From Brevibacterium sp. (GTDB lineage: Bacteria > Actinomycetota > Actinomycetes > Actinomycetales > Brevibacteriaceae), in NCBI GenBank assembly GCA_030457025.1, contig JAKDSA010000006.1:1-64000 (forward strand): a stretch of DNA of 64,000 bases. The letters run 5' to 3'. The position numbers and the translations under genes were made by a program. Positions 42,054 through 53,544 of this stretch are shown one piece after another. The notes under the pieces are model-generated. The model was not told the origin of the DNA and ran no database searches. It was given only the letters and a program-made list of their open reading frames with translations. How positions within the stretch are numbered: the stretch's first letter is position 1; each line of letters begins with the position of its first letter.

Positions 42054-42113
42054 TACCTGAGTGTGCAGGGTTCACCTCTAGCAGTCGCGCGATGAACCCT
42101 GATGATGTCTGAA

Positions 42114-42150
42114 GAACGCCGGGAATGCAGTTTCTGCATTCCCGGCGTTC
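42114..42150 (+). terminator. Rho-independent terminator after ndh
   Basis: A 17-bp perfect stem (GAACGCCGGGAATGCAG at 42114-42130 with 42134-42150) and a TTT loop, followed by TTGTC. Confidence 0.9.
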
Positions 42151-42231
42151 TTGTCATTCACTGCGTCTCGGTGTTCGTCGGGAGGCGTGGAACAGTCGAC
42201 CTGTGATCGATATTAGCCACGCTGGCAGAAG

Positions 42232-42693
42232 TCAGTCATTGCTGATCTCCGCGAGCACCTCGGCGAGTTCCCGAAGCTCACCCGCCACACGGTACCTGCG
42301 AGGCGAACCGGAGTACGTCCAATTGCTCGTGATCATAGACGCGCTGGCGCCGTTGGTGGTGACGGTGTACTCCTCATGGCTGAGCTGCGCCGTCCGGTGA
42401 GCGATCAGCCGCTGACGCAGTTCGGGGGAGAGGGCCTGCCAGTGGTCGGCTGCCTCATAGCCGAGCTGATGCCAATCGGCACCTGCTTCACGATAGGCGA
42501 GCGGGCGGTTGGACAGGATGGTCACGGTGCTCTTTGCCTGGGACGTCTGAGGTGCTGAGCCTTGGCCGACGTCGCCCGAGGCCACTGGAGTCGCGAAGAC
42601 AACGGCAGGCCCCGGTGCGGTGTCGACGTTGGGATCTTCCATATCGCCGACGGACAGAGGGGGACCCTGCAGGGTGAGCAGCACATTCGTCAT
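42232..42693 (-). CDS. Hypothetical protein at the island edge
   Basis: About 153 residues from the ATG at 42693 (an in-frame start at 42762 would reach the IS remnants). The N-terminus is Pro/Asp-rich and apparently disordered. The middle and C-terminal parts are hydrophilic (EAADHWQALSPELRQRLIAH, YTVTTNGASASMITSNWTYSG). No family is recognised. Base composition is like the core genome, so it probably belongs to the left flank rather than the island. Confidence 0.6.
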   Translation of the reverse strand: MTNVLLTLQGPPLSVGDMEDPNVDTAPGPAVVFATPVASGDVGQGSAPQTSQAKSTVTILSNRPLAYREAGADWHQLGYEAADHWQALSPELRQRLIAHRTAQLSHEEYTVTTNGASASMITSNWTYSGSPRRYRVAGELRELAEVLAEISND

Positions 42694-42763
42694 GTCACCA
42701 TCTTGCCCGGGCGAGCGGCCGGATGCGAACCTCCACGCGTGCGCACGACGCTTGCGTGTCAAC

Positions 42764-42852: not shown

Positions 42853-42935
42853 CCACTCGTTGTGTCGGGACTGATGCAGGGTTAGGTGACATCTAGTCTG
42901 GCTTGTATCAAGACAAGTCTGGAAGGATGGACACC

Positions 42936-43241
42936 ATGCCACAGCCCTACCCGAAAGAGTTCCGCGACGACGTCATCCGCGTCGCTTTGGATCGGGATTC
43001 CAAAACCACGATCGGACAGATCGCCACGGACTTCGGAGTCCACGAAGTCACTATCGCGAAATGGCTCCGCCAAGCCGAGGTCGATGCCGGCAACAAACCC
43101 GGCAACACCACCGACGAGTCGGCTGAACTGCGAGAGATGCGTCGGCGCAATCGTCTGCTGGAGCAGGAAAACGAGGTACTGCGCCGCGCAGCCGCGTACT
43201 TGTCGCAGGCGAATTTGGCGTCAAAAGGCTCTATCCGCTAG
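42936..43241 (+). CDS. IS3-family transposase OrfA
   Basis: A 101-residue DNA-binding subunit: helix-turn-helix region (EFRDDVIRVALDRDSKTTI, IATDFGVHEVTIAKWL) followed by a leucine-zipper-like helix (ELREMRRRNRLLEQENEVLRR). The ATG at 42936 has GGAAGG nine bases upstream; a TTG at 42903 and an ATG at 42927 are alternatives. Its stop overlaps the orfB GTG by one base, where IS3 elements normally make an OrfAB fusion by frameshift. Confidence 0.85.
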   Translation: MPQPYPKEFRDDVIRVALDRDSKTTIGQIATDFGVHEVTIAKWLRQAEVDAGNKPGNTTDESAELREMRRRNRLLEQENEVLRRAAAYLSQANLASKGSIR

Positions 43242-44156
43242 TGAGAGAGCTCGCCGTCGACGGGATCCCCGTGGCGGTGTCGTGCCGGGTTTTGAAGCTC
43301 TCACGCCAGCCCTACTACCGGTGGCTGGCCGCACCTGTCCCTGAAGCCGAGGTTCGTGAGGCGTATCGGGCCAACGCGCTGTTAGATGCCCACCGGGATG
43401 ATCCCGAGTTCGGGTACCGGTACCTCGCCGATGAAGCCGAAGCCAGCGGGCAGCCTATGGCGCAACGCACCGCGTGGCGGCTGTGTTCAGACAATGCGTG
43501 GTTCTCGGCCTTCGGCAAGGGCCGGGCCAAGAATGGAAAACGGCCAGGCCCGGCCGTTCATGACGATCTGTGCGTCGTCATCGACGCTGATGGGAGGTCG
43601 CGGCATGAGCACCCACGACCGAATCAACACCGTCGAGCGGGTCTGTACCGATCTGGTCCGTCACGGCCACCCAGTCACGTTCACCGCCGTTGCCAAAGCT
43701 ACTGGGCTCAGTCGCTCCACGCTTTACCGCGACACGGACCTGCGCGCAATCGTCGAGCACCATACACAGGCCAAGACCGCGGAGACCCCGATGACTGTGA
43801 TCACCGACGAGATTACGACGCTACGGGCGGCGGTAAGTACCCTGTCCGAACAAGTCCGCAGCCATGACGAACAGCTGCGCCGCCTGCGCGACTGACTTCA
43901 TTAACCGGCCAAAACACCAAACTGACGTTGATTAGCCGGATAAGCTGGCGACAACGCGGCTATGGAATCGTTCTTTTCCCTGGTGCAGAAGAACGTTCTT
44001 GACCGTCGTCGATGGGCTACGAGAGACCAGTTGCGGATCGCGATTGTGACTTGGATCGAGCGGACGTATCACCGACGCCGGAGGCAAGTTCGGTTGGGTC
44101 GAATGACACCGGTCGAGTACGAAGCAATCATAGAGCCAGCTGCACTCGCAGCTTGA
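43241..44156 (+). pseudogene. IS3-family transposase OrfB, split and missing its DDE core
   Basis: The N-terminal part (43241 to about 43574) gives a normal OrfB start (HTH_21 region, LLDAHRDDPEFGYRYLADEA) up to VHDDLC. The C-terminal part resumes near 43940 with GDNAAMESFFSLVQKNVL and runs to 44156. The integrase core between them, with the first two catalytic aspartates, is absent, so the element cannot transpose on its own. Confidence 0.85.
43605..43895 (+). CDS. TnpC/DUF6262-like protein inserted in IS3 orfB
   Basis: A 96-residue protein with a helix-turn-helix (VTFTAVAKATGLSRSTLYRD) and a C-terminal coiled coil (ITTLRAAVSTLSEQVRSHDEQL). This is the layout of the small third protein of Tn554-like elements that encode two tyrosine recombinases plus TnpC. 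The ATG at 43605 has a GGGAGG ribosome site. It sits in the gap of the broken IS3 orfB; its recombinase partners are not here except for the fragment at 44339. Confidence 0.7.
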   Translation: MSTHDRINTVERVCTDLVRHGHPVTFTAVAKATGLSRSTLYRDTDLRAIVEHHTQAKTAETPMTVITDEITTLRAAVSTLSEQVRSHDEQLRRLRD

Positions 44157-44338: not shown

Positions 44339-44542
44339 TCAATGTGATCGGTTCATCCACTCGCCGAGTCGTAGTGCTGCGCGAACAATGTTGTGGGTCG
44401 TCGTGAGTGCGTAGCCCTGGGCGGAAAGCCAGTCGACGAATTCGGCCAGCAGTGGTTCAAAGGCGCCCCCATTGCGCCGGGGGTGTATTCCCAGTCCTGT
44501 CCACCAAACGTTGGTGACGACTGTGTCCTTTTGTGCGTTCAT
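44339..44542 (-). pseudogene. Tyrosine recombinase, N-terminal fragment
   Basis: 67 residues matching the core-binding (SAM-like) domain of phage-type integrases: GGAFEPLLAEFVDWLSAQGY and TTHNIVRAALRLGEWMNR. The start has a good ribosome site (AGGAGAAGGG), so the 5' end is intact, but the gene stops before the catalytic domain. Confidence 0.65.
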
Positions 44543-44705: not shown

Positions 44706-44888
44706 TATAAAGCCGAATTGGTTGACCGGAAAGTGTGGTCAGGGTTGATCGAGGTCATGGCCGAGACATCGAAATGGATCGGTTGGTACAACGGGCGACG
44801 ATTGCATTCGGCGATTGGATACCGGCCGCCGTTCGAGGTTCACCGAGAGTGGATCGAAGGCAGTGGCAACGAAGCCGTGGCTGCCTAA
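44706..44888 (+). pseudogene. IS3-family OrfB, C-terminal fragment
   Basis: The last 60 codons of a different IS3-family transposase (KAELVDRKVWSGLIEV, WIGWYNGRRLHSAIGYRPP), lacking everything upstream. The element's right end probably follows near 44940. Confidence 0.75.
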
Positions 44889-45041: not shown

Positions 45042-46976
45042 CTATTGCCGAGTCGCACTCTCCCTGAACCCCGTTCCAGGGGATACACGTCCAGGCGAGG
45101 GCACTCCGAATGCGGCGGCTACGGAGCAGACAATCATACACACGAGGATTGAGATGGCAATTTCCCCATAGGGAACAATAACTTCAGCTCTCGAACCTGA
45201 CTCGTGTAGCCCGAGGCCCATTCGGTGATAGATTATCCAGATTGCTCCCGCAGAGATGGTTACCGCTGACATCAAAATGCTGAGGACTTCGGCTATAAAT
45301 GCCCGAGCAGTAGCTCCTGCTCCAATGCCCATGTTATTGAGAGTCGTAATCGTTAGCCTCCGCCCGCGGACCGTGTTGAAGACATACTGCGAGATGCCGG
45401 CAATCAGGAGAAATCCTGCGCCGCTTAAGAGCGCGACGATTGCAACTCTCTGCGTTGAGATTGATGACTCCACATTGCGTTGCGCCCAGGTATTAAACGA
45501 TTCAACAGTCGCCTCTGGAAACGCTGTCTCGAGAGTTTCCGCGGGCAGACGAGTTCCTGAGCGTGCGCTACTGGGGACGAATATGGTGTCTTCTTCAGAC
45601 TCCCCGTTAAGTGTGCCGAAGGTCCGACTGTCTACCACAAGACTGCCATTGAGGAAACTGGAGCTGGCCAAAACTGCGACTACATGTACTTCCTTGGTCG
45701 AACCGGAATCTGATCGGATGCGCAATGTGTCACCGATATTCGCAACGCCCTGAAAGGCAGCCACCTGGGAGCCGTGTACATCCGCGAAACTACCTTCTTC
45801 GGCATGAACAGGAATGTGATAGTCAAGAGAGTCTGGATCGACTCCGACGATGTCGAGGGGTTGATCCATAGGTACGGAATTTTGATCCCATGACCATTCT
45901 GCTGACTTGCGAACTACTGAGGCATCTGACTTATCAAGCTGCTCGGCCTTCGCGTTCGAATCGACCAGCGATGGTCCAGAAACTACCGTGTCCACGTTCG
46001 ATACTTCGAAATATCCGGCGGAACTCTCGGCCCGACCGGTTTGCGCCATCATGCCGAAACACGCGCTTAGCGTAACGAACAGGACGGTTGGTGCAGCCAG
46101 CGAAATTGATCGGTGTAAGTCGTGAGCAATGTGTCCACGAGCGACCATTCGTGCACCAGCCGACCCTAGGGAGAAGACGTAAGCAAAAAGTCTGGCAAGG
46201 GCTGGGACTAGCAGGGGAAGGCTCGCGATAGCCAGTAGGGTGGCACCGCCGCATGCCAGAATAGTTCCCACTTGAAAATTTATGTTTGCAGAAATCGGAC
46301 CAAAACTGACGAAAAGCAAGCCTGCGCCAACGGCCCCAAAAATCATCCGTGCAATCGAAAGTCCTGATCGACCCGACACGTCTTTTCTCGTCGAATCAAC
46401 CACGCCTATCTGACCTTGACGGAACATTGCTGCCACAGCAGCCAGCAGAGCAAGGCATAACACCCCAAACACTGTCACGATCAGTGCAACAGGATCAGTG
46501 TTGGCTTCGTAGCCTTTTGGCCAATTACTGGATCGTTCCATAAGGGCTACGTACGGCTGAATTAGTAAAGGTGATAGGGCCGCTCCCAGAATTGAACACA
46601 TGCCTACAAGGAGACAAGTCTCAATAATGACTGTGCGATTAATCTGGGCCGTTGTTGCGCCGAGAAGCCTTGTTAACGCAAACTCGCGTCGTCGCCCATC
46701 CAGTACGAATCGAATGTTCTGTGTGGTGAGCAGAAATGTAGTGCCTGCGGCGATGACGACGAGTAGACCGGTGAACGTTTGGGCGGACACGACCCTGCTA
46801 AGCAACTCGGCGATCTCGTTCCTGCTCAAATATGAGGAACTGTAGGTGATTAAGCCAGCGCTCCGATAGAGCGAAAACGATGAACCCAGCAGGGCCGAGG
46901 CAAGGATAAGGATGACAGCCAGACCGGTATAGCTAGACCGGTGGCGAATCAACATCTTCAAGCTAATCCTGAGCAT
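45042..46976 (-). CDS. FtsX-like ABC permease of the lanthipeptide operon (LanE-like)
   Basis: A 644-residue membrane protein with the MacB/FtsX layout: a first span after LISLKML-type basic start (RHRSSYTGLAVILILAS), a cluster of spans around residues 60-150 and 200-300, a large extracytoplasmic domain (about residues 305-500), and three further spans near the C-terminus. Its ATG overlaps the upstream ATPase stop (TGATG). With that ATPase it probably forms a two-gene exporter giving self-protection or product removal. It is the last gene of the operon. Low G+C marks it as acquired. Confidence 0.83.
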   Translation of the reverse strand: MLRISLKMLIRHRSSYTGLAVILILASALLGSSFSLYRSAGLITYSSSYLSRNEIAELLSRVVSAQTFTGLLVVIAAGTTFLLTTQNIRFVLDGRRREFALTRLLGATTAQINRTVIIETCLLVGMCSILGAALSPLLIQPYVALMERSSNWPKGYEANTDPVALIVTVFGVLCLALLAAVAAMFRQGQIGVVDSTRKDVSGRSGLSIARMIFGAVGAGLLFVSFGPISANINFQVGTILACGGATLLAIASLPLLVPALARLFAYVFSLGSAGARMVARGHIAHDLHRSISLAAPTVLFVTLSACFGMMAQTGRAESSAGYFEVSNVDTVVSGPSLVDSNAKAEQLDKSDASVVRKSAEWSWDQNSVPMDQPLDIVGVDPDSLDYHIPVHAEEGSFADVHGSQVAAFQGVANIGDTLRIRSDSGSTKEVHVVAVLASSSFLNGSLVVDSRTFGTLNGESEEDTIFVPSSARSGTRLPAETLETAFPEATVESFNTWAQRNVESSISTQRVAIVALLSGAGFLLIAGISQYVFNTVRGRRLTITTLNNMGIGAGATARAFIAEVLSILMSAVTISAGAIWIIYHRMGLGLHESGSRAEVIVPYGEIAISILVCMIVCSVAAAFGVPSPGRVSPGTGFRESATRQ

Positions 46977-47728
46977 CAGCCGACTTGCCCTTCCAGTAGC
47001 GACAGCTGAGCGGAAAGTTCCTGTGGGCTGAGACCTTCGAATGATTGTTTGATGATGCCGTCTGCGAGCCAGATGACCCTGGCTGCATGTGAAGCGACAA
47101 ACGCATCGTGCGTGACCATCAGCACCGTGGACCCTAAATCGTTGACCTTGTTCAGCAAGTTCATGACCACCTGCCCCGAGCGGCTGTCCAGGGCACCCGT
47201 AGGTTCGTCAGCGAACAATACCGCCGGTCTAGTCAGCAACGCCCTAGCAATCGCAACGCGCTGTTGTTCTCCTCCAGACAGATTGTCCGGCAATTCGTGA
47301 TCTCGGCCTTCAAGTCCGACACTTTCGAGGACATCCCGAACTTCACCTTCTGTTGGAACATCATTGCCATAGATCCGCGGCAAACAGACGTTATCGCGAA
47401 CGGTCAACGCGGACAGAAGGTTGTAGTCCTGAAAAACAAAACCGATTTCCTGCCTACGCATACTAGTCAACCGTCTCTCGCCAATCCGCTTCGTGTCACG
47501 GTCGTTCAACAATACTGAACCGTGTGAGGGGCGAAGAAGTCCCGCAGCGCACATGAGTAAGGTGGATTTACCCGAGCCTGACGGCCCCATGACGGCGATC
47601 CACTCACCACCTCGGACAGCGAGATCAATGTTGTTGAGGACTGTCTGGTCGGAAGAACCACCGTCAAATCCGAAATAGACCGATCGAAACTCAATCGAAC
47701 AGCCCGTGGAGTTCTCCGTATGCATCAA
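46976..47728 (-). CDS. ABC transporter ATPase, LolD/MacB type (LanF-like)
   Basis: A 250-residue nucleotide-binding subunit: Walker A GPSGSGKST, Q-loop FVFQDYNLL, signature LSGGEQQR, Walker B VLFADEPTGALD and the H-loop VTHDAFVA. The sequence is of the LolD/MacB/BceA group that partners FtsX-fold permeases, and the permease gene follows with translational coupling. In lanthipeptide loci such pairs usually serve immunity or efflux; that role here is inferred from context. Confidence 0.87.
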   Translation of the reverse strand: MMHTENSTGCSIEFRSVYFGFDGGSSDQTVLNNIDLAVRGGEWIAVMGPSGSGKSTLLMCAAGLLRPSHGSVLLNDRDTKRIGERRLTSMRRQEIGFVFQDYNLLSALTVRDNVCLPRIYGNDVPTEGEVRDVLESVGLEGRDHELPDNLSGGEQQRVAIARALLTRPAVLFADEPTGALDSRSGQVVMNLLNKVNDLGSTVLMVTHDAFVASHAARVIWLADGIIKQSFEGLSPQELSAQLSLLEGQVG

Positions 47729-47776
47729 CTCTACTTCCCGCTCGAACGCTCATTGAAACAACGTCGAAGCTTGGCA

Positions 47777-49552
47777 TCAATTTGCTACTGGACTAAAATT
47801 ATCTCTGGATAGATGCTGGTCGACCAAATCGCGATAGTACCCATTCAAACTGTAAAGTGCTTCGGGTGAGCCCTGTTCTAGGCATTCACCGAAGCTCAAT
47901 ACACAAATGAAATCGGCCTTTGCAATCGTGCTGAATCGATGCGCAGTGACCACGACAGTGTGGTCCGTTGCTAGATCCTTCAGCAGAGAAACGATGAGAT
48001 CTTCGGTGTGTCCATCCAAATTCGAAGTAGGTTCATCGAACAGGAGGATCTTTGGAGAGGACAAGAGTGCCCTGGCAATAGCCAAACGCTGCTTCTGTCC
48101 GCCGGACATGGAGACACCTGATACTCCGATTTCTGTCTCCAAACCATCCCTATTGTCCAACCATTCGCTCAAGCCGACACGGCGTAGGATCTGGTACATG
48201 AACTCGTCAGGTGGGCACTCGGTTAACGAGAAGCACAAGTTTTCACGTATGCTGCCGCCTATTACAAGAGATTCCTGATCTACGTATGCAATATTCTCCC
48301 GAATCGCATTGACAGTTTCCGGAGTCACCGCGACACCGTCCACATAAACACGACCGGAGTCGGGGAAGAAGAACCCTTCGATCAATCCCAAACACGTGGA
48401 CTTACCGCTGCCTGAAGAGCCAATAATTGCCGTTAAGCCGGTAGTGGGTACTGCTAAGTTAAGGTCCTGCAACACTACCTCGCCGGAGGCAGGGTAGGAA
48501 TAATTCACTGACTCAAACACAAACGAAGAGTTGGTAGCGTCGTCGATTGTAGAACTGGGTGTCTGAAAGCCCTGTGGAATGTCATTGGAGCTTGAGTTCA
48601 TACGACTGATTTCTGAGAAGTGTCCTAATGCGGCCTTACACTCAGAAATCGCAGCTGGGAACCCCGCGACCTCTTGAAGCGCTGTCTGGAATATATTAAA
48701 CAGCATTAGAAAAGTAATAAGTTCGGGGAACCCGAGATGGCCGGAGGCAACTCTCCACCCACCCACTACGAAAACACCAGCGTATGCGATTTGCATCAGG
48801 GTGACCGATATAGGTCCCAGCATGCTATAGATTTTATTTAGACGTACGCCACTATTGCGCGAGCTCTGAACTGATGTCTCGATCTCTCCGCGGACTAGAT
48901 CGTCCGCATTCGAGGAAATGATCAATGGCGATGCCGACACGGCCGTCATTATTTTGTCGGACATCGTCGAGTTCTGACCCTGTATGAGCGACCGCAGTCG
49001 CCCTGCAGGTTTTGACACGCCAATCGCTACGAGGAGCGACATGATCGATAGGACGATTGGAAAAAGAATGGTTGGAGCATCAATGGTGAACATCACCGTG
49101 ATCGCGATCAACAGCAAAATTGAGTTTTGAACGAACTGAACGACCGAACCACCGATGAAGCGTCCAACCATGGGAGGATCCGTGACGAGACGGGAACTGA
49201 ACCAGCCGCCGCCTCGAGACTGGCGACTGAGTAATGGTAGAGCGAAAAAGCTTCGAAGGAATCTGTAGCGCCAGTTTGCCGTTGAGTCTTCAGTCAAACT
49301 CCCGAGAATGAACTGTTGAAGTCCTGAACTGAACGCAACCAATAGCGAGAGTCCGATGACGAAGGCTAGACTTTTGATTACGGGCCGCGAGTCTTGAACT
49401 CGTGCGATCAGTTCTCCTGCCCAAAAGGGTTGGACTATTGAGCAGACGGTTGTCACCACCGCTAAGGCGAGGCCAAGTAGAAGCGGCTTGTAGTGGGTTC
49501 TTAAGTGATGTGAAAGCCTTATCTCGCTGGGCCTTTTGCGTTGCATTTCCAC
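47777..49552 (-). CDS. ABC exporter (fused membrane and ATPase domains) of the lanthipeptide operon, LanT-like
   Basis: A 591-residue half-transporter that should work as a dimer to export the peptide. Six membrane spans occupy about residues 20-330. The ATPase domain has Walker A GSSGSGKST, signature VSMSGGQKQR and Walker B ILLFDEPTSNLD. There is no N-terminal C39 peptidase domain, so, as is usual in class III systems, leader removal must be done by another enzyme. It starts 97 bases after the second precursor gene, with a long hairpin in between, and precedes the ATPase-permease pair by 48 bases. Confidence 0.88.
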   Translation of the reverse strand: MEMQRKRPSEIRLSHHLRTHYKPLLLGLALAVVTTVCSIVQPFWAGELIARVQDSRPVIKSLAFVIGLSLLVAFSSGLQQFILGSLTEDSTANWRYRFLRSFFALPLLSRQSRGGGWFSSRLVTDPPMVGRFIGGSVVQFVQNSILLLIAITVMFTIDAPTILFPIVLSIMSLLVAIGVSKPAGRLRSLIQGQNSTMSDKIMTAVSASPLIISSNADDLVRGEIETSVQSSRNSGVRLNKIYSMLGPISVTLMQIAYAGVFVVGGWRVASGHLGFPELITFLMLFNIFQTALQEVAGFPAAISECKAALGHFSEISRMNSSSNDIPQGFQTPSSTIDDATNSSFVFESVNYSYPASGEVVLQDLNLAVPTTGLTAIIGSSGSGKSTCLGLIEGFFFPDSGRVYVDGVAVTPETVNAIRENIAYVDQESLVIGGSIRENLCFSLTECPPDEFMYQILRRVGLSEWLDNRDGLETEIGVSGVSMSGGQKQRLAIARALLSSPKILLFDEPTSNLDGHTEDLIVSLLKDLATDHTVVVTAHRFSTIAKADFICVLSFGECLEQGSPEALYSLNGYYRDLVDQHLSRDNFSPVAN

Positions 49553-49592
49553 TCTGTTCTTTTACCCGGTGGTCAATTTGAAGGTTTGTGTA

Positions 49593-49632
49593 CGGCAGGG
49601 AACCAGCGACGTTCGTCGCCAATTCCCTGCCG
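49593..49632 (-). terminator. Intercistronic hairpin between the second precursor gene and the exporter
   Basis: A perfect 10-bp outer stem (CGGCAGGGAA at 49593-49602 with 49623-49632) encloses an inner GCGAC-GTTC-GTCGC stem-loop (49606-49619). There is no U-tract. Probably an attenuator or RNA-stability element that keeps precursor expression above that of the exporter. Confidence 0.6.
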
Positions 49633-49648
49633 CTTGTGTGGCTACTGA

Positions 49649-49777
49649 TCAGCAATGATTGCTTGTCAGGCTCCAGGAAGCGCCGTTACATGACTTGCTT
49701 GTCAGCGAAAAGGCCTGCCCATAAGTCTGAGCTCCCTCTCCCTGATCCGAAGTCTGAAGACCTAGAATGGATCCCAT
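49649..49777 (-). CDS. Class III lanthipeptide precursor peptide 2
   Basis: A 42-residue peptide that fits a LanA of class III. The leader begins MGSILGLQTSDQGEG and contains the hydrophobic ILGLQ recognition motif (ILELQ-like) that LanKC enzymes bind. The C-terminal core holds two similar units, AFSLTSKSC (22-30) and SWSLTSNHC (34-42), each with Ser-x2-Ser-x2-Cys, and ends in Cys. The ribosome site AAGGAGAG is six bases before the ATG. It differs from precursor 1 at eight of 42 positions. It is easily missed because it is short. Confidence 0.88.
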   Translation of the reverse strand: MGSILGLQTSDQGEGAQTYGQAFSLTSKSCNGASWSLTSNHC

Positions 49778-49899
49778 TTTGACTCTCCTTTTTAATCAGT
49801 TCGAATGGTTCAATAGTCGGTAGGGCTTGCGAGAGGCAGCGTTGTCTTGGCCGAGCCATTCGAACCCTAGTCTGCGCAGCCCGCGCGCGATCTATCGAA

Positions 49900-50028
49900 T
49901 CAGCAGTGCCTGCTTGTCAGACTCCAGGACGAACCGTTGCAGTAGTTGCTGGTAAGTGACCACGCCTGTCCCTGAGTCTGTGCGCCCTCGCTCTGAATCG
50001 AGGTCTGAAGACCTAGAATGGATCCCAT
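49900..50028 (-). CDS. Class III lanthipeptide precursor peptide 1
   Basis: A 42-residue LanA of class III: leader MGSILGLQTSIQSEG with ILGLQ, and core units AWSLTSNYC (22-30) and SWSLTSRHC (34-42). Ser24/27 with Cys30 and Ser36/39 with Cys42 are the expected ring-forming residues, with Thr26 and Thr38 also open to dehydration. The ATG at 50028 follows a strong AAAGGGGGTG site. An in-frame ATG 26 codons upstream lacks such a site, and precursor 2 shows where the conserved peptide begins. It lies 93 bases behind lanKC. Confidence 0.9.
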   Translation of the reverse strand: MGSILGLQTSIQSEGAQTQGQAWSLTSNYCNGSSWSLTSRHC

Positions 50029-50121
50029 CGTTCTACACCCCCTTTCGTAATGTTGAGCATTTCTATGTCGAGGAAGGATCTCCTCTGATTCACCTGATTG
50101 GCGCAATATTGAAATGCGTCA

Positions 50122-52752
50122 TTAGGCAAAACTGGTGGTTCGAAGACCGGCGCTCATATTCTTTAACGCAAACAGAACTCCGCTGGCCCCGTCTTCGAAG
50201 TTGACAGATAGATGCTGATTTCCGGAGCCGGCGACATAGACTGCGTTATCTTCGTCTGGTGTGCGAAAGAACATCGGCGATAAGAGTCGCAACTCACGGT
50301 CGAGAACATCGTCGATTTTGAGGCCGTCTAAGGAATGAATGTCTAACCTAGTTAAGGCAAATAGCAGTCCGGAACGCCCCTGGAGAAGTCCAGCGCCGAC
50401 GGCCGCTCTGCCAACACAAGCACGCGCGATCATCTTCAGAACTTCCGTATCCCCTGGTCTACGACTAGATCGCGGGATTGAACTGAGAGCAACGCCTAGA
50501 CCAGCGCTACCTCCATCAAGGTACGGCAGCATTCGGATTCCGTCATCTGCCTGCAACGAGTTGTCTGGAGCGACAGTCATATTTTCATAATCAAAGTCAA
50601 TGGCGACTCGCGCGGCTTGATATAGTTCCCGATCTCGATAGTGTTGGCCTGCCTTGGCTAAGGCAAGAGCTACACCTGACCAGCCATCGAAGAGTCCGAG
50701 CGGAACTTGTGTAGACGAACCTGGGCTGTGAAGCGACATATTCGCGGATCGGGTTGCAGCTACAAGCTGGGTTATCGATTCTTCAAGATCTTGTTGGACC
50801 TCGGTGTCCGAGCAGTGTCTTAGAAGTTCAAGTTGACCAATGGCTAAACCGGATTTGCCGGTTCGTAATGAGAGGTTATCGGTACTGATCTGCTTATGGT
50901 CCAGGTGGGGGTAGAGGGCCAAGGCGCTACGGGTCCGGCCACATTTTGCCAGCGTTAGGACGCCACCGAGAGCTCCGGTCATCAGAGACGGATCGGAACT
51001 GGTCGATTGCTCGAGATGCTGTTCCAGGAGGTCAAGATCATCGCTAAGGTGTTTGTTCTGACCGTCCAGGCCGATGAGAACACCAGATAGTCCCGTTGCG
51101 ATGGAAGCGGCGTCGCCAGCGCTGGTCACAGCTCTCCCAGCCCCGTATAGCCCGGTTATAGTCGGAGAGGCCCGCACTCGAGTAATGCCATTCGCGATCT
51201 TCGAAATGGTTCGATCTAACGACGATAGTGACATCTCCGATATGTCGATATTTACTACGGTATCGGAGCTATCTTCAAACTCTTCCAACCGACGCCGAAG
51301 GCGTATAAGCTGCTGACGGATATCGGATGTGAAGTGGTGTTCGATCAATTCCTGAAGGGTTGTCGTAACAGAATGTGAAATAGATGCGACAGAAGTCACT
51401 GGGCAGAACAGGTAGAGAGCTAGTTGTAGGAGCGCGTAGTAGTCCCTGTGCAATGGTGATTGGGACCTGTTTGGAATATAGCCAGGAGTTCCGATGTAAG
51501 AATCTGGACTATCATCATGGATTCCGCAGGATGATTCTAGGTCGATGATGCGGACGTGATCATCGGGTTCAATGATCACGTTAAAGGGCTGCAAATCCAT
51601 GATCGCTATTCTCTTGGCGTGTATCGAATCAATTTTCGAGACGAGCTCAGTCAGGATAGATAGTGCCCGGGTTTCATAGTCGTTGGTTGTGTACGAATAG
51701 CTGAACGGAAAGTTTCTAGATATCCAACTGTGCAAATTCTGACCCTGAATATACTCTTCAAAGAGGAAGGCGTGGTTCCCGATTATCTTGATATCACGAG
51801 GTGCAGGGGTGCAGCTTGTAGTGCTTAGAGCTTTGAGCGTTGCGTGTTCGCTAATAACTCGCGTATAAGCGTCGATTCGACGGTGATCGATTCCTGCCAG
51901 CGCGCGTCCCTCTTTCAGGACTGTCTGTTTTCCTTCGGAATCTTGCAGAAGGTAGACGCCTCCGCCATTGCTGAAGTGCAGGGCACGTTCGACGGTGTAT
52001 CCATCAAGAAGTCGGGCGGCTCCATCATCCGTGGGATTGAGGCGCTCATCGACTGTCTTCTTCAAAAATTCCGGAGCTGTGACGAAATCGGGCAAGGTAA
52101 AGGCAGGGGAGCGGTCATCCTCGACGAGGTTCCCAGCAGCATCTCGAATGCACAGTACGGCAGCTCCAGAGTGGGCAGTTTTTGACAATTCTCGGAACGC
52201 TCCATACCGAAGATACACAGGAGCTTCGCCGTACTTCACGTCCGAAAGAATGTACGGACCGGGGAAACCGTTGAGGCCTTCTTCGAGGAATTCGAGTGCT
52301 CGTCGTAATTGCTCTTCAGTGGCCGGGTAGAGCGTTATGAATTTTCCAGCGCTTCCACGGTCGAAATATTTGGAGTTCGCTTTTCGAAATTCACCGACGT
52401 TGGTGAGATGTTTGAAGGGGATGGTGGAAGAGAATGCATAGTCGCTGACTATCGACAACGACTGCGGCGCAGTGTTTTCGGTTGCACTTATATGTATCTT
52501 CCATCCTTGCTCGGGAAGTGTATAAGTTCCCGGTGAAATGTGCGACCAAGGTGCCTCGGTGTACCTGGTCCAACCGATAGGAATTGAGACTTGATATTTG
52601 TGGTCGTTGCTCATAAAGCCGAAGCGAGAAGAATCAAATAATCGCTCGAGCGCTTCTGAGGCCTCGTGGCTCGGATGGAAAGTTGTGTCGCCATCGGAAG
52701 AACTATTGTTTGGAGCAGTATTTGCCTGCGGCGAAGGACTTTGATCCAGCAT
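50122..52752 (-). CDS. lanKC: Class III lanthipeptide synthetase LanKC
   Basis: An 876-residue three-domain enzyme that phosphorylates Ser/Thr of the precursor, eliminates phosphate and closes (methyl)lanthionine or labionin rings. The N-terminal lyase domain (about 1-230) has the family mark QGWKIHISAT (82-91). The kinase domain (about 250-520) has VLKE (Lys280), MDLQPFN (Asp386, Asn391) and IIDLES (Asp404). The C-terminal cyclase-like domain shows repeated G-x-x-G (GALGGVL, DGWSGVALAL, LLQGRSGLL) but none of the Cys-Cys-His zinc ligands, which places it in class III rather than class IV. First gene of the operon, low G+C. Confidence 0.93.
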   Translation of the reverse strand: MLDQSPSPQANTAPNNSSSDGDTTFHPSHEASEALERLFDSSRFGFMSNDHKYQVSIPIGWTRYTEAPWSHISPGTYTLPEQGWKIHISATENTAPQSLSIVSDYAFSSTIPFKHLTNVGEFRKANSKYFDRGSAGKFITLYPATEEQLRRALEFLEEGLNGFPGPYILSDVKYGEAPVYLRYGAFRELSKTAHSGAAVLCIRDAAGNLVEDDRSPAFTLPDFVTAPEFLKKTVDERLNPTDDGAARLLDGYTVERALHFSNGGGVYLLQDSEGKQTVLKEGRALAGIDHRRIDAYTRVISEHATLKALSTTSCTPAPRDIKIIGNHAFLFEEYIQGQNLHSWISRNFPFSYSYTTNDYETRALSILTELVSKIDSIHAKRIAIMDLQPFNVIIEPDDHVRIIDLESSCGIHDDSPDSYIGTPGYIPNRSQSPLHRDYYALLQLALYLFCPVTSVASISHSVTTTLQELIEHHFTSDIRQQLIRLRRRLEEFEDSSDTVVNIDISEMSLSSLDRTISKIANGITRVRASPTITGLYGAGRAVTSAGDAASIATGLSGVLIGLDGQNKHLSDDLDLLEQHLEQSTSSDPSLMTGALGGVLTLAKCGRTRSALALYPHLDHKQISTDNLSLRTGKSGLAIGQLELLRHCSDTEVQQDLEESITQLVAATRSANMSLHSPGSSTQVPLGLFDGWSGVALALAKAGQHYRDRELYQAARVAIDFDYENMTVAPDNSLQADDGIRMLPYLDGGSAGLGVALSSIPRSSRRPGDTEVLKMIARACVGRAAVGAGLLQGRSGLLFALTRLDIHSLDGLKIDDVLDRELRLLSPMFFRTPDEDNAVYVAGSGNQHLSVNFEDGASGVLFALKNMSAGLRTTSFA

Positions 52753-53057
52753 TATAAGAGTGGCTCAATTCGTGAGTGTATTAGTTAGTGCATCATCGTG
52801 ACTAACGCGGTAGACACGATGCATGTTTGGCGAAACAGTAACCGACGTTGTCACTGAAGATGTTATGTAGTGCTCTAGGCGCTGTCAAGTTAACATGTTG
52901 AATAGTAGGGGAACTCTCTTCAGGGAGGCCTTGGGCGAGGGTGATCTATTGCGAAGGATGGACAAGTGCCCTGGCATGTTGAGGCGTCACTAGTTGTATG
53001 TTGGTTCTCGGCGTTTTAGCGCCGAGGCGGTGAGCAAGAGTTTGCGGCTGCAGCGTC
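52753..53057. other. Intergenic region upstream of lanKC
   Basis: About 300 bases without a credible gene. It holds the lanKC promoter (52860-52888), about 100 bases of leader before lanKC, and a CTCGGCG...CGCCGAG hairpin at 53007-53026 next to the integrase fragment. Confidence 0.6.
52860..52888 (-). promoter_or_regulatory. Sigma-70-type promoter of the lanthipeptide operon
   Basis: On the minus strand TTGACA (52883-52888), a 17-base spacer and TAACAT (52860-52865): a perfect -35 and a good -10 with ideal spacing, about 100 bases before the lanKC ATG. No regulator gene or obvious operator is nearby, so expression may be constitutive unless a host factor acts here. Confidence 0.7.
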
Positions 53058-53390
53058 ATGACGGCGTTGCGTCAGTCCCAGGAGACACGCCCTAGCGCGG
53101 TTTCTCTAGCCGGCAAAGGCACATGGAAATGGTCGAACAACTACCGGCGAACGCTGAGGGCGGCGCTCAAGGATATTGAGAGTGACTGTCAGATGTCGCC
53201 GCATGTATTCCGGAAATCCGTAGCCACACTCATCAACGCCGAAGCGACTCTCGAAGCGGCTGCCGCTGTGCTTGGGCACTCAATTACGGCAGTCACTGCG
53301 AAGCACTATGTGAAGAAAGCGACCGCGGCTCCCGATATGTCGGAGATCCTCGATCGATTCGGCAAGAACCGGAACGAAAAAGATGGGTAA
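53058..53390 (+). pseudogene. Tyrosine recombinase/integrase, C-terminal catalytic fragment
   Basis: About 110 residues of a phage-type integrase. The catalytic HxxR (SPHVFRKSVATLIN), the second His (LGHS) and the nucleophile Tyr (HYVKK) are present. The N-terminal and core-binding domains and the first catalytic Arg are missing; the frame is closed upstream by a stop at 53031. It lies 80 bases from the tRNA 3' end, as expected for a tRNA-targeting island. Confidence 0.8.
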
Positions 53391-53470
53391 ACGTGGGGTT
53401 CTCGACTCCATATCGGAATCAACTCAACCGCACGGAAAGCATCATTGCAGGTCAAGCACAATTTGTGCGG

Positions 53471-53544
53471 TCCCCCCAGTGGGACTCGAACCCACACTTG
53501 ATCGATTTTAAGTCGACTGCCTCTGCCGATTGGGCTATAGGGGG
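53471..53544 (-). tRNA. tRNA with anticodon UAA (Leu by anticodon), short variable arm
   Basis: A 74-base cloverleaf: acceptor CCCCCTA pairs with TGGGGGG, anticodon stem GTCGA/TCGAT around loop CTTAAAA (anticodon TAA), variable loop CAAGT, T-arm GTGGG-TTCGAGT-CCCAC, discriminator A, no encoded CCA. The anticodon says leucine, but a normal tRNA-Leu has a long variable arm, which is missing. Its 3' end faces the island. Confidence 0.85.

What the first reader, a model, noticed from the sequence alone, without database searches (positions are those of the whole stretch)
45042..52888. Complete class III lanthipeptide operon with two precursors in a low-GC island
Seen: one promoter and six same-strand genes in the order lanKC, lanA1, lanA2, ABC exporter, LolD-type ATPase, FtsX-type permease. 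The synthetase has the QGWKIHxSAT lyase mark, kinase residues and a zinc-less cyclase domain. Known: this combination makes class III lanthipeptides such as SapB and labyrinthopeptins. Inference: the product is a two-component or duplicated lanthipeptide of a new subfamily with surfactant, morphogen or antimicrobial action.
Basis: partly seen in the sequence, partly recalled or inferred. Interest (0 to 1): 0.92.

Follow-up and report, generated by a model that had tools for sequence, protein, structure and literature searches.

The report
New two-precursor lanthipeptide gene cluster
An actinobacterium carries, on a small piece of inserted DNA, a set of genes for making, exporting and probably surviving two near-identical ring-bearing peptides; the kind of system is well known, but the peptides belong to a sequence family for which only one distant relative was found here.

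Summary
On the minus strand, 52888 to 45042, lie lanKC, lanA1, lanA2, an ABC exporter, an ABC ATPase and an FtsX-type permease, all open. LanKC scores 662 bits against NCBI's class III equivalog (cut-off 575); lyase and kinase residues are present, cyclase zinc ligands absent. The two 42-residue precursors are 81% identical and under purifying selection (dN 0.15, dS 0.79): duplicates, not an unlike two-component pair. One relative with the same gene order and precursor build (W/F-SxxSxxC...SW-SxxSxxC) was found, in a Bifidobacteriaceae MAG. The last two genes look more like a BceAB-type lantibiotic self-protection transporter than Lol lipoprotein export, though that test is inconclusive; it favours an antimicrobial over a SapB-like morphogen. 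The genes sit in a 10.7 kb insertion, mostly 50-56% GC, between a conserved ORF and tRNA-Leu. Verdict: a real new member of a known kind (class III lanthipeptides) with a new precursor family. 'Complete' is overstated: no protease or regulator was seen in the cluster. No product has been shown.

The parts
52860..52888 (-). sigma-70-like promoter TTGACA-17-TAACAT
   Evidence: 10 of 12 consensus bases, not above chance by count, 107 bases before lanKC
50122..52752 (-). lanKC, class III lanthionine synthetase (lyase, kinase, zinc-less cyclase)
   Evidence: NF038151 662 bits, cut-off 575; RamC_N, Pkinase, LANC_like; residues
49900..50028 (-). lanA1 precursor, MGSILGLQ leader start and core with two SxxSxxC
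49649..49777 (-). lanA2 precursor, 81% identical to LanA1
47777..49552 (-). ABC exporter (fused membrane and ATPase domains, no peptidase domain found)
   Evidence: PF00664 + PF00005; 37% identical to the exporter at the same place in G216
46976..47728 (-). ABC ATPase, partner of the FtsX-type permease
   Evidence: PF00005; 44% identical to G216 counterpart
45042..46976 (-). FtsX-type permease, BceB-like layout, probable self-protection (inference)
53058..53390 (+). C-terminal remnant of a tyrosine integrase next to tRNA-Leu
   Evidence: PF00589, profile 100-169 of 172; similar stretches beside tRNA-Leu in 4 of 19 relatives read
53469..53544 (-). tRNA-Leu (TAA), right border of the island
   Evidence: conserved neighbour in relatives
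42903..44156 (+). IS3-family element in several frames, apparently broken, left part of the island
44718..44888 (+). tail of a second IS3-family transposase
   Evidence: PF13683, NF033516

Best explanation
A class III lanthipeptide cluster of a new precursor family. LanKC binds the ILGLQ leader of LanA1 and LanA2, phosphorylates core Ser (and possibly Thr), eliminates phosphate to give dehydroamino acids, and closes two small rings per peptide at the two SxxSxxC motifs as labionin or (methyl)lanthionine. The ABC exporter takes the peptide out; a host protease encoded elsewhere trims the leader. The ATPase plus FtsX-type permease work like a BceAB transporter that protects the producer from its own peptide, so the product is most likely a cell-envelope-active antimicrobial. 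Shown by sequence: genes, order, class, kept active-site residues, conserved precursor build, purifying selection, insertion beside tRNA-Leu. Inferred: ring chemistry, export, trimming, self-protection, antimicrobial action.
For: Class III equivalog over cut-off, class IV model under its own. Window residues K85, H87, K114, K137, D171, R182, R214 match the ThurKC lyase set and K128, R298, E302, E406 the lyase-kinase contact and helix-C residues (set from PMC10604976, passages; matched on the alignment with an offset of 3; read); K280, D386, N391 and D404 fit the canonical kinase residues (recalled). The three zinc positions are D746, L790, Q791, not Cys-Cys-His. Precursors: 17 columns invariant across LanA1, LanA2 and the G216 precursor. 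Same order KC-A-exporter-ATPase-permease in G216 at 32, 37, 44 and 24% identity; LanKC of window and G216 form a clade at SH-aLRT 99 in a tree of 27 rows. Permease: 644 aa, hydrophobic segments 7 + 3 with a stretch from about 310 to 510 between; two-row profile hit to PsdB, a lantibiotic transporter permease of 646 aa, E 2.2e-5.
Against: No expression or product data. The profile search hit LolF better than PsdB (6.7e-7) and LolC equally (2.2e-5), and these hits cover only the first FtsX domain; the single-sequence PsdB hit is E 0.04. A further hydrophobic segment (430-448) falls inside the proposed loop, and the simple hydropathy count gives 11 segments in the window protein and 9 in G216's. 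No BceRS-like regulator was seen beside it in the ORF list. In ThurKC the residues at two zinc sites (F770, D771) were needed for cyclisation and the window has L790, Q791; but the rows with SapB-like cores (G620, G745, G661) also lack that Asp by pattern. The tree is a quick one with long branches. As assembled, the G216 gene lacks the lyase part: the first 109 bases of its contig carry stops in the lanKC frame, so that comparison rests on the kinase and cyclase parts.
Confidence: 0.7

Rival explanations
1. The product is a SapB-like surfactant or morphogen, and the ATPase-permease pair only exports it.
For: Class III includes SapB; the core is short with two rings as in the SapB-like precursors found in G661, G745 and G620.
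Against: LanKC does not group with the LanKC rows that have SapB-like precursors; cores differ (SxxSx3C there, SxxSxxC here); the cluster already has a fused exporter; the permease has a BceB-like loop by hydropathy.
Confidence: 0.15
2. A dissimilar-partner two-component lanthipeptide in which LanA1 and LanA2 must act together.
For: Two precursors kept side by side under purifying selection.
Against: The precursors are 81% identical with the same ring motifs; in the G216 relative only one precursor was found.
Confidence: 0.07
3. A decaying island: the genes are open by chance but silent or inactive.
For: Integrase and IS elements at both ends look broken; no attachment-site repeat of the tRNA end was found.
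Against: All six lan genes are open and the precursor pair shows dN/dS about 0.19.
Confidence: 0.1

Closest known systems
Class III lanthipeptide clusters in general (SapB, labyrinthopeptin, andalusicin/ThurKC)
   Same: LanKC architecture, LQ leader motif, SxxSx(2-5)C core motifs, no linked protease in most
   Different: LanKC only about 27-34% identical over its length to the relatives found; both rings of the tight SxxSxxC type; permease with BceB-like layout
Uncharacterised cluster in Bifidobacteriaceae MAG Cd354_bin28 (JAIRNM010000220.1 = L099, identical to L089 of G216)
   Same: gene order, precursor build (SIL.LQ leader, W-SxxSxxC, SW-SxxSxxC), same three transporter genes
   Different: one precursor found instead of two; LanKC 32%, permease 24-25% identical; lanKC incomplete on the contig
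BreLI and other Brevibacterium class III clusters (PMC5719810, passages)
   Same: class III LanKC, precursors with two Ser/Ser(Thr)/Cys motifs, ABC transporters, mobile setting
   Different: LanKC of the genus-mates about 28-31% identical over their length; their 10-segment permeases beside the ATPase are 475-540 aa open frames in G027, G043, G004, with another of 614 in G043; BreLI is a 96 kb ICE at a ribonucleotide reductase gene, this is a 10.7 kb remnant at tRNA-Leu
BceAB-type transporters (BceAB, PsdAB, NsrFP)
   Same: separate ATPase plus one FtsX-type permease with a stretch of about 200 aa between the seventh and eighth helices, by hydropathy
   Different: no linked two-component system seen; sequence match to PsdB covers the first FtsX domain only, and Lol permeases match there too

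Membership tests
Class III lanthipeptide synthetase (LanKC) | match to class III model above its curated cut-off and above class IV | tested here: met
   NF038151 662.2 bits (cut-off 575); NF038150 330.5 (cut-off 650)
Class III lanthipeptide synthetase (LanKC) | lyase and kinase catalytic residues present | tested here: met
   residue set from PMC10604976 passages, canonical kinase residues recalled
Class III lanthipeptide synthetase (LanKC) | cyclase domain without the Cys-Cys-His zinc ligands | tested here: met
   positions read D746, L790, Q791 by sequence alignment only
Class III lanthipeptide precursor | LQ leader motif and SxxSx(2-5)C core motif | tested here: met
   motif definition PMC11251773 and PMC8960859 passages
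Class III lanthipeptide | lanthionine or labionin in the mature peptide | not testable with these tools
   needs mass spectrometry
BceAB-type transporter | permease with 10 helices and 150-250 aa extracellular domain between helices 7 and 8, ATPase gene adjacent (PMC12484072, passages) | tested here: inconclusive
   hydropathy only: 7 segments, 200-residue stretch, 3 segments, plus one hydrophobic segment in the loop; the structure model was too poor to use, mean pLDDT 37.7
BceAB-type transporter | sequence relation to a solved BceB-type permease | tested here: inconclusive
   PsdB E 2.2e-5 with a two-row profile, but LolF and LolC hit the same domain as well or better
Dissimilar two-component lanthipeptide | two structurally dissimilar precursors | tested here: not met
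   81% identity, same motifs

The most novel reading that the evidence does not exclude
The cluster and its Bifidobacteriaceae relative found a separate family of class III antibiotics with two tight SxxSxxC rings that bind a lipid II cycle intermediate, the producer being protected by a BceAB-type transporter; I recall no characterised class III peptide with that target.
Probability: 0.25. Interest if true: 0.6.

Novelty: new member of a known kind. Interest (0 to 1): 0.36.

Why it matters
It adds a precursor family with no close relative in the collections searched, and the linked BceAB-like pair gives a testable hint about target and self-protection. Class III clusters are many (2377 putative ones in PMC7268733, passages), so the step is modest.

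Tried and rejected
Rejected: class IV (score under cut-off); two unlike components; recent transfer from a known plasmid or phage (0 of 10 plasmid and 0 of 1 phage records matched cover 80% of the operon; the rows shown cover 1-2%). LanKC as protein in plasmids: 80 records, 10 with at least 80% cover at 28-32% identity, best partial 41% over the N-terminal half (20 rows shown). LanKC alone in genome contigs: 34 pattern matches, none a relative; in viral contigs: 10, none; both scans use exact short peptides and miss distant kin. P0001 in plasmids: no match. No 16S gene found in the assembly, so the genus name rests on inference. The permease structure model was not used; no fold search was run and no LanKC model was made. 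An attachment-site repeat of the tRNA end was sought and not found.

Rows dropped: the SapB-type row was in the wrong frame and is disregarded; loci lying on the minus strand were read as if on the plus strand, redone, where 19 of 29 loci given yielded a LanKC by my pattern. The tree has 27 rows: those 19, the window and seven added; left out were G004 (two pieces), G147, both G442 copies, the second G524 and G246 copies, and G051 and G056 (their two LanKC are identical to G027's). In one search five listed ORFs are chance ORFs by eye (G216 second, G117 first, G398 second, G260 second, G224 second); G117 second is a precursor (VFELQ) that my pattern flagged wrongly. The second BreLI-type precursor of G027 is not in the list, and none was found beside G043's LanKC.

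Full report
What is there. Gaps between them are 93, 122, 96, 48 and -1 bases (from the coordinates). LanA1 and LanA2 have good ribosome sites (AAAGGGGG and AAGGAGA); that of lanKC is weak. The only promoter-like site that the scan gives upstream of lanKC is TTGACA-17-TAACAT at 52888-52860; by number such sites are no more common than in shuffles.

Synthetase. LanKC meets NCBI's class III equivalog at 662 bits (cut-off 575) and is well below the class IV cut-off. Its nearest solved chains are 9wj0 (E 9e-91, named only 'protein kinase domain-containing protein') and the class III enzyme ThurKC, 8sam/8sao/8sap (E about 7e-83). PMC10604976 (passages) lists ThurKC residues that matter; chain 8sao is offset by 3 from the paper's numbers (my count on the alignment). 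The counterparts are kept in the window: K85, H87, K114, K137, D171, R182, R214 of the lyase; K128, R298, E302 and E406 of the lyase-kinase contact and helix C (the DFE motif reads DLE); K280, D386, N391 fit the canonical kinase residues, which I recall. At the three zinc-ligand places stand D746, L790 and Q791, so the cyclase is zinc-less by alignment.

Precursors. LanA1 and LanA2 are 42 aa and 81% identical. They differ at 27 bases without a gap, 19 at third positions; dN 0.147, dS 0.79 by a Nei-Gojobori count. Both have SILGLQ in the leader and two SxxSxxC motifs in the core. That lies inside the class III motif SxxSx(2-5)C given in PMC11251773 and PMC8960859 (passages). Among the precursors read beside LanKC in 18 other clusters, a double SxxSxxC core occurs in two, G216 and G117, and a single one in G260; the other motifs have three or four residues before Cys (my count after dropping five chance ORFs).

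Relatives. In the window's genus, LanKC passes the family cut-off in 4 of 57 genomes, the window's own included; two more (G043, G004) fall below it. A LanA1 match at E 0.01 occurs in 1 of 57, its own. Across the order, 17 of 396 genomes, own included, hold LanKC relatives at E 1e-40; in a phylum sample 10 of 396 at 1e-60, own included; a second order draw that overlaps the first, with a two-row profile, gave 14 of 397 at 1e-90, own included. Full-length matches are about 27-34% identical; matches of the N-terminal half reach 38%, and 41% in a Streptomyces plasmid. The best by architecture is G216: its contig L089 is letter for letter the named record JAIRNM010000220.1, 'Bifidobacteriaceae bacterium isolate Cd354_bin28', the one relative among 82 pattern matches. 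It has lanKC, one lanA, exporter, ATPase and FtsX permease in the same order. Its lanKC lacks the lyase part: the first 109 bases of the contig carry stops in that frame, so it is broken or badly assembled at the contig edge. The three precursors share 17 invariant columns. In a 27-row quick tree window and G216 pair at SH-aLRT 99, with long branches (1.45 and 1.31), so the split is old. Of the 18 genomes held of G216's family, many incomplete, only G216 has a match.

Transporters. The exporter shows membrane and ATPase domains and no peptidase domain. The second pair: the permease has 644 residues, seven hydrophobic segments between 18 and 309, three between 511 and 624, and about 200 residues between, in which one more segment (430-448) passes the threshold; G216's permease gives six and three. 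[quoted passage not shown] A two-row profile hits PsdB (9ugg, 646 aa) at 2.2e-5, though LolF (6.7e-7) and LolC (2.2e-5) hit as well or better; alone the window protein hits PsdB at 0.04. In five of six other clusters examined a 9-10-segment open frame of 445-540 aa stands beside the ATPase, too short for that domain; G043 has a further one of 614 aa, and G350's contig ends first. PMC8003753 (passages) reports Corynebacterium permeases of this kind without the domain. I therefore read the pair as BceAB-like self-protection; the test is inconclusive, not passed.

Setting. GC is 0.50-0.56 from 44 to 53 kb. I read the best 19 loci of the 56 genus-mates that match the right flank. In 11 of the 19 a conserved ORF (window 42232-42762) lies 40-695 bases from tRNA-Leu; in the window the gap is 10,706 bases. 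The lan region matched in 0 of 19, but each locus reaches only 1.5 kb past the match. The insertion carries an apparently broken IS3 element, a second IS3 tail and a C-terminal integrase remnant beside the tRNA; similar integrase stretches stand beside tRNA-Leu in 4 of 19. No repeat of the tRNA end marks the other border. This fits an old island at a tRNA hotspot.

Host. The genus is probably Brevibacterium: three genus-mates share an identical pair of LanKC genes 9.5 kb apart, as expected of BreLI (PMC5719810, passages), and the IS3 element is 86% identical to one on a Brevibacterium plasmid, though also 85% to a Kocuria one. This is inference.

Leader removal. No protease was seen in the cluster, usual for actinobacterial class III (PMC7268733, passages). 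The genome has two M1 peptidases, the kind I recall for AplP; no link is shown.

Print. A first search listed 30 of 90 papers. Brevibacterium with class III lanthipeptide gave 2 papers, of which only PMC5719810 is on point by title. Termite or Bifidobacteriaceae with LanKC terms gave none that joins the two in the 15 listed of 94. A search on class III lanthipeptide, FtsX, BceAB and immunity (15 listed of 246) led to the BceAB papers. Precursor words gave none on point in the 10 listed of 69. I saw passages only, of seven papers. Subscription journals, nr and MIBiG were not searched.

Verdict. Ordinary in class, new in precursor family as far as searched, with a useful clue to target in the linked transporter.

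Noticed in passing
window 53469-53544 and 53058-53390: tRNA-Leu (TAA) may be an integration hotspot in the genus: stretches similar to the window's integrase remnant stand beside it in 4 of 19 relatives read.
   Followed up: partly
window 42112-42152: Perfect 19-base inverted repeat with a 3-base loop just after the NADH dehydrogenase-like gene, probably its terminator.
   Followed up: no
L116 (G816 C45), reverse strand, around 6.8-10 kb: A class III cluster with five different precursor-like ORFs just downstream of one LanKC.
   Followed up: no
window 44342-44542 (-): 67-aa ORF that looked like an integrase N-terminus by eye but matches no Pfam family at E 0.001.
   Followed up: partly
L096 (G004 C74): LanKC in a genus-mate matches in two pieces in different open frames, perhaps a decayed class III cluster.
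   Followed up: no
L089/L099 1-109: The relative's lanKC has stops in frame at the contig edge and lacks the lyase part.
   Followed up: partly
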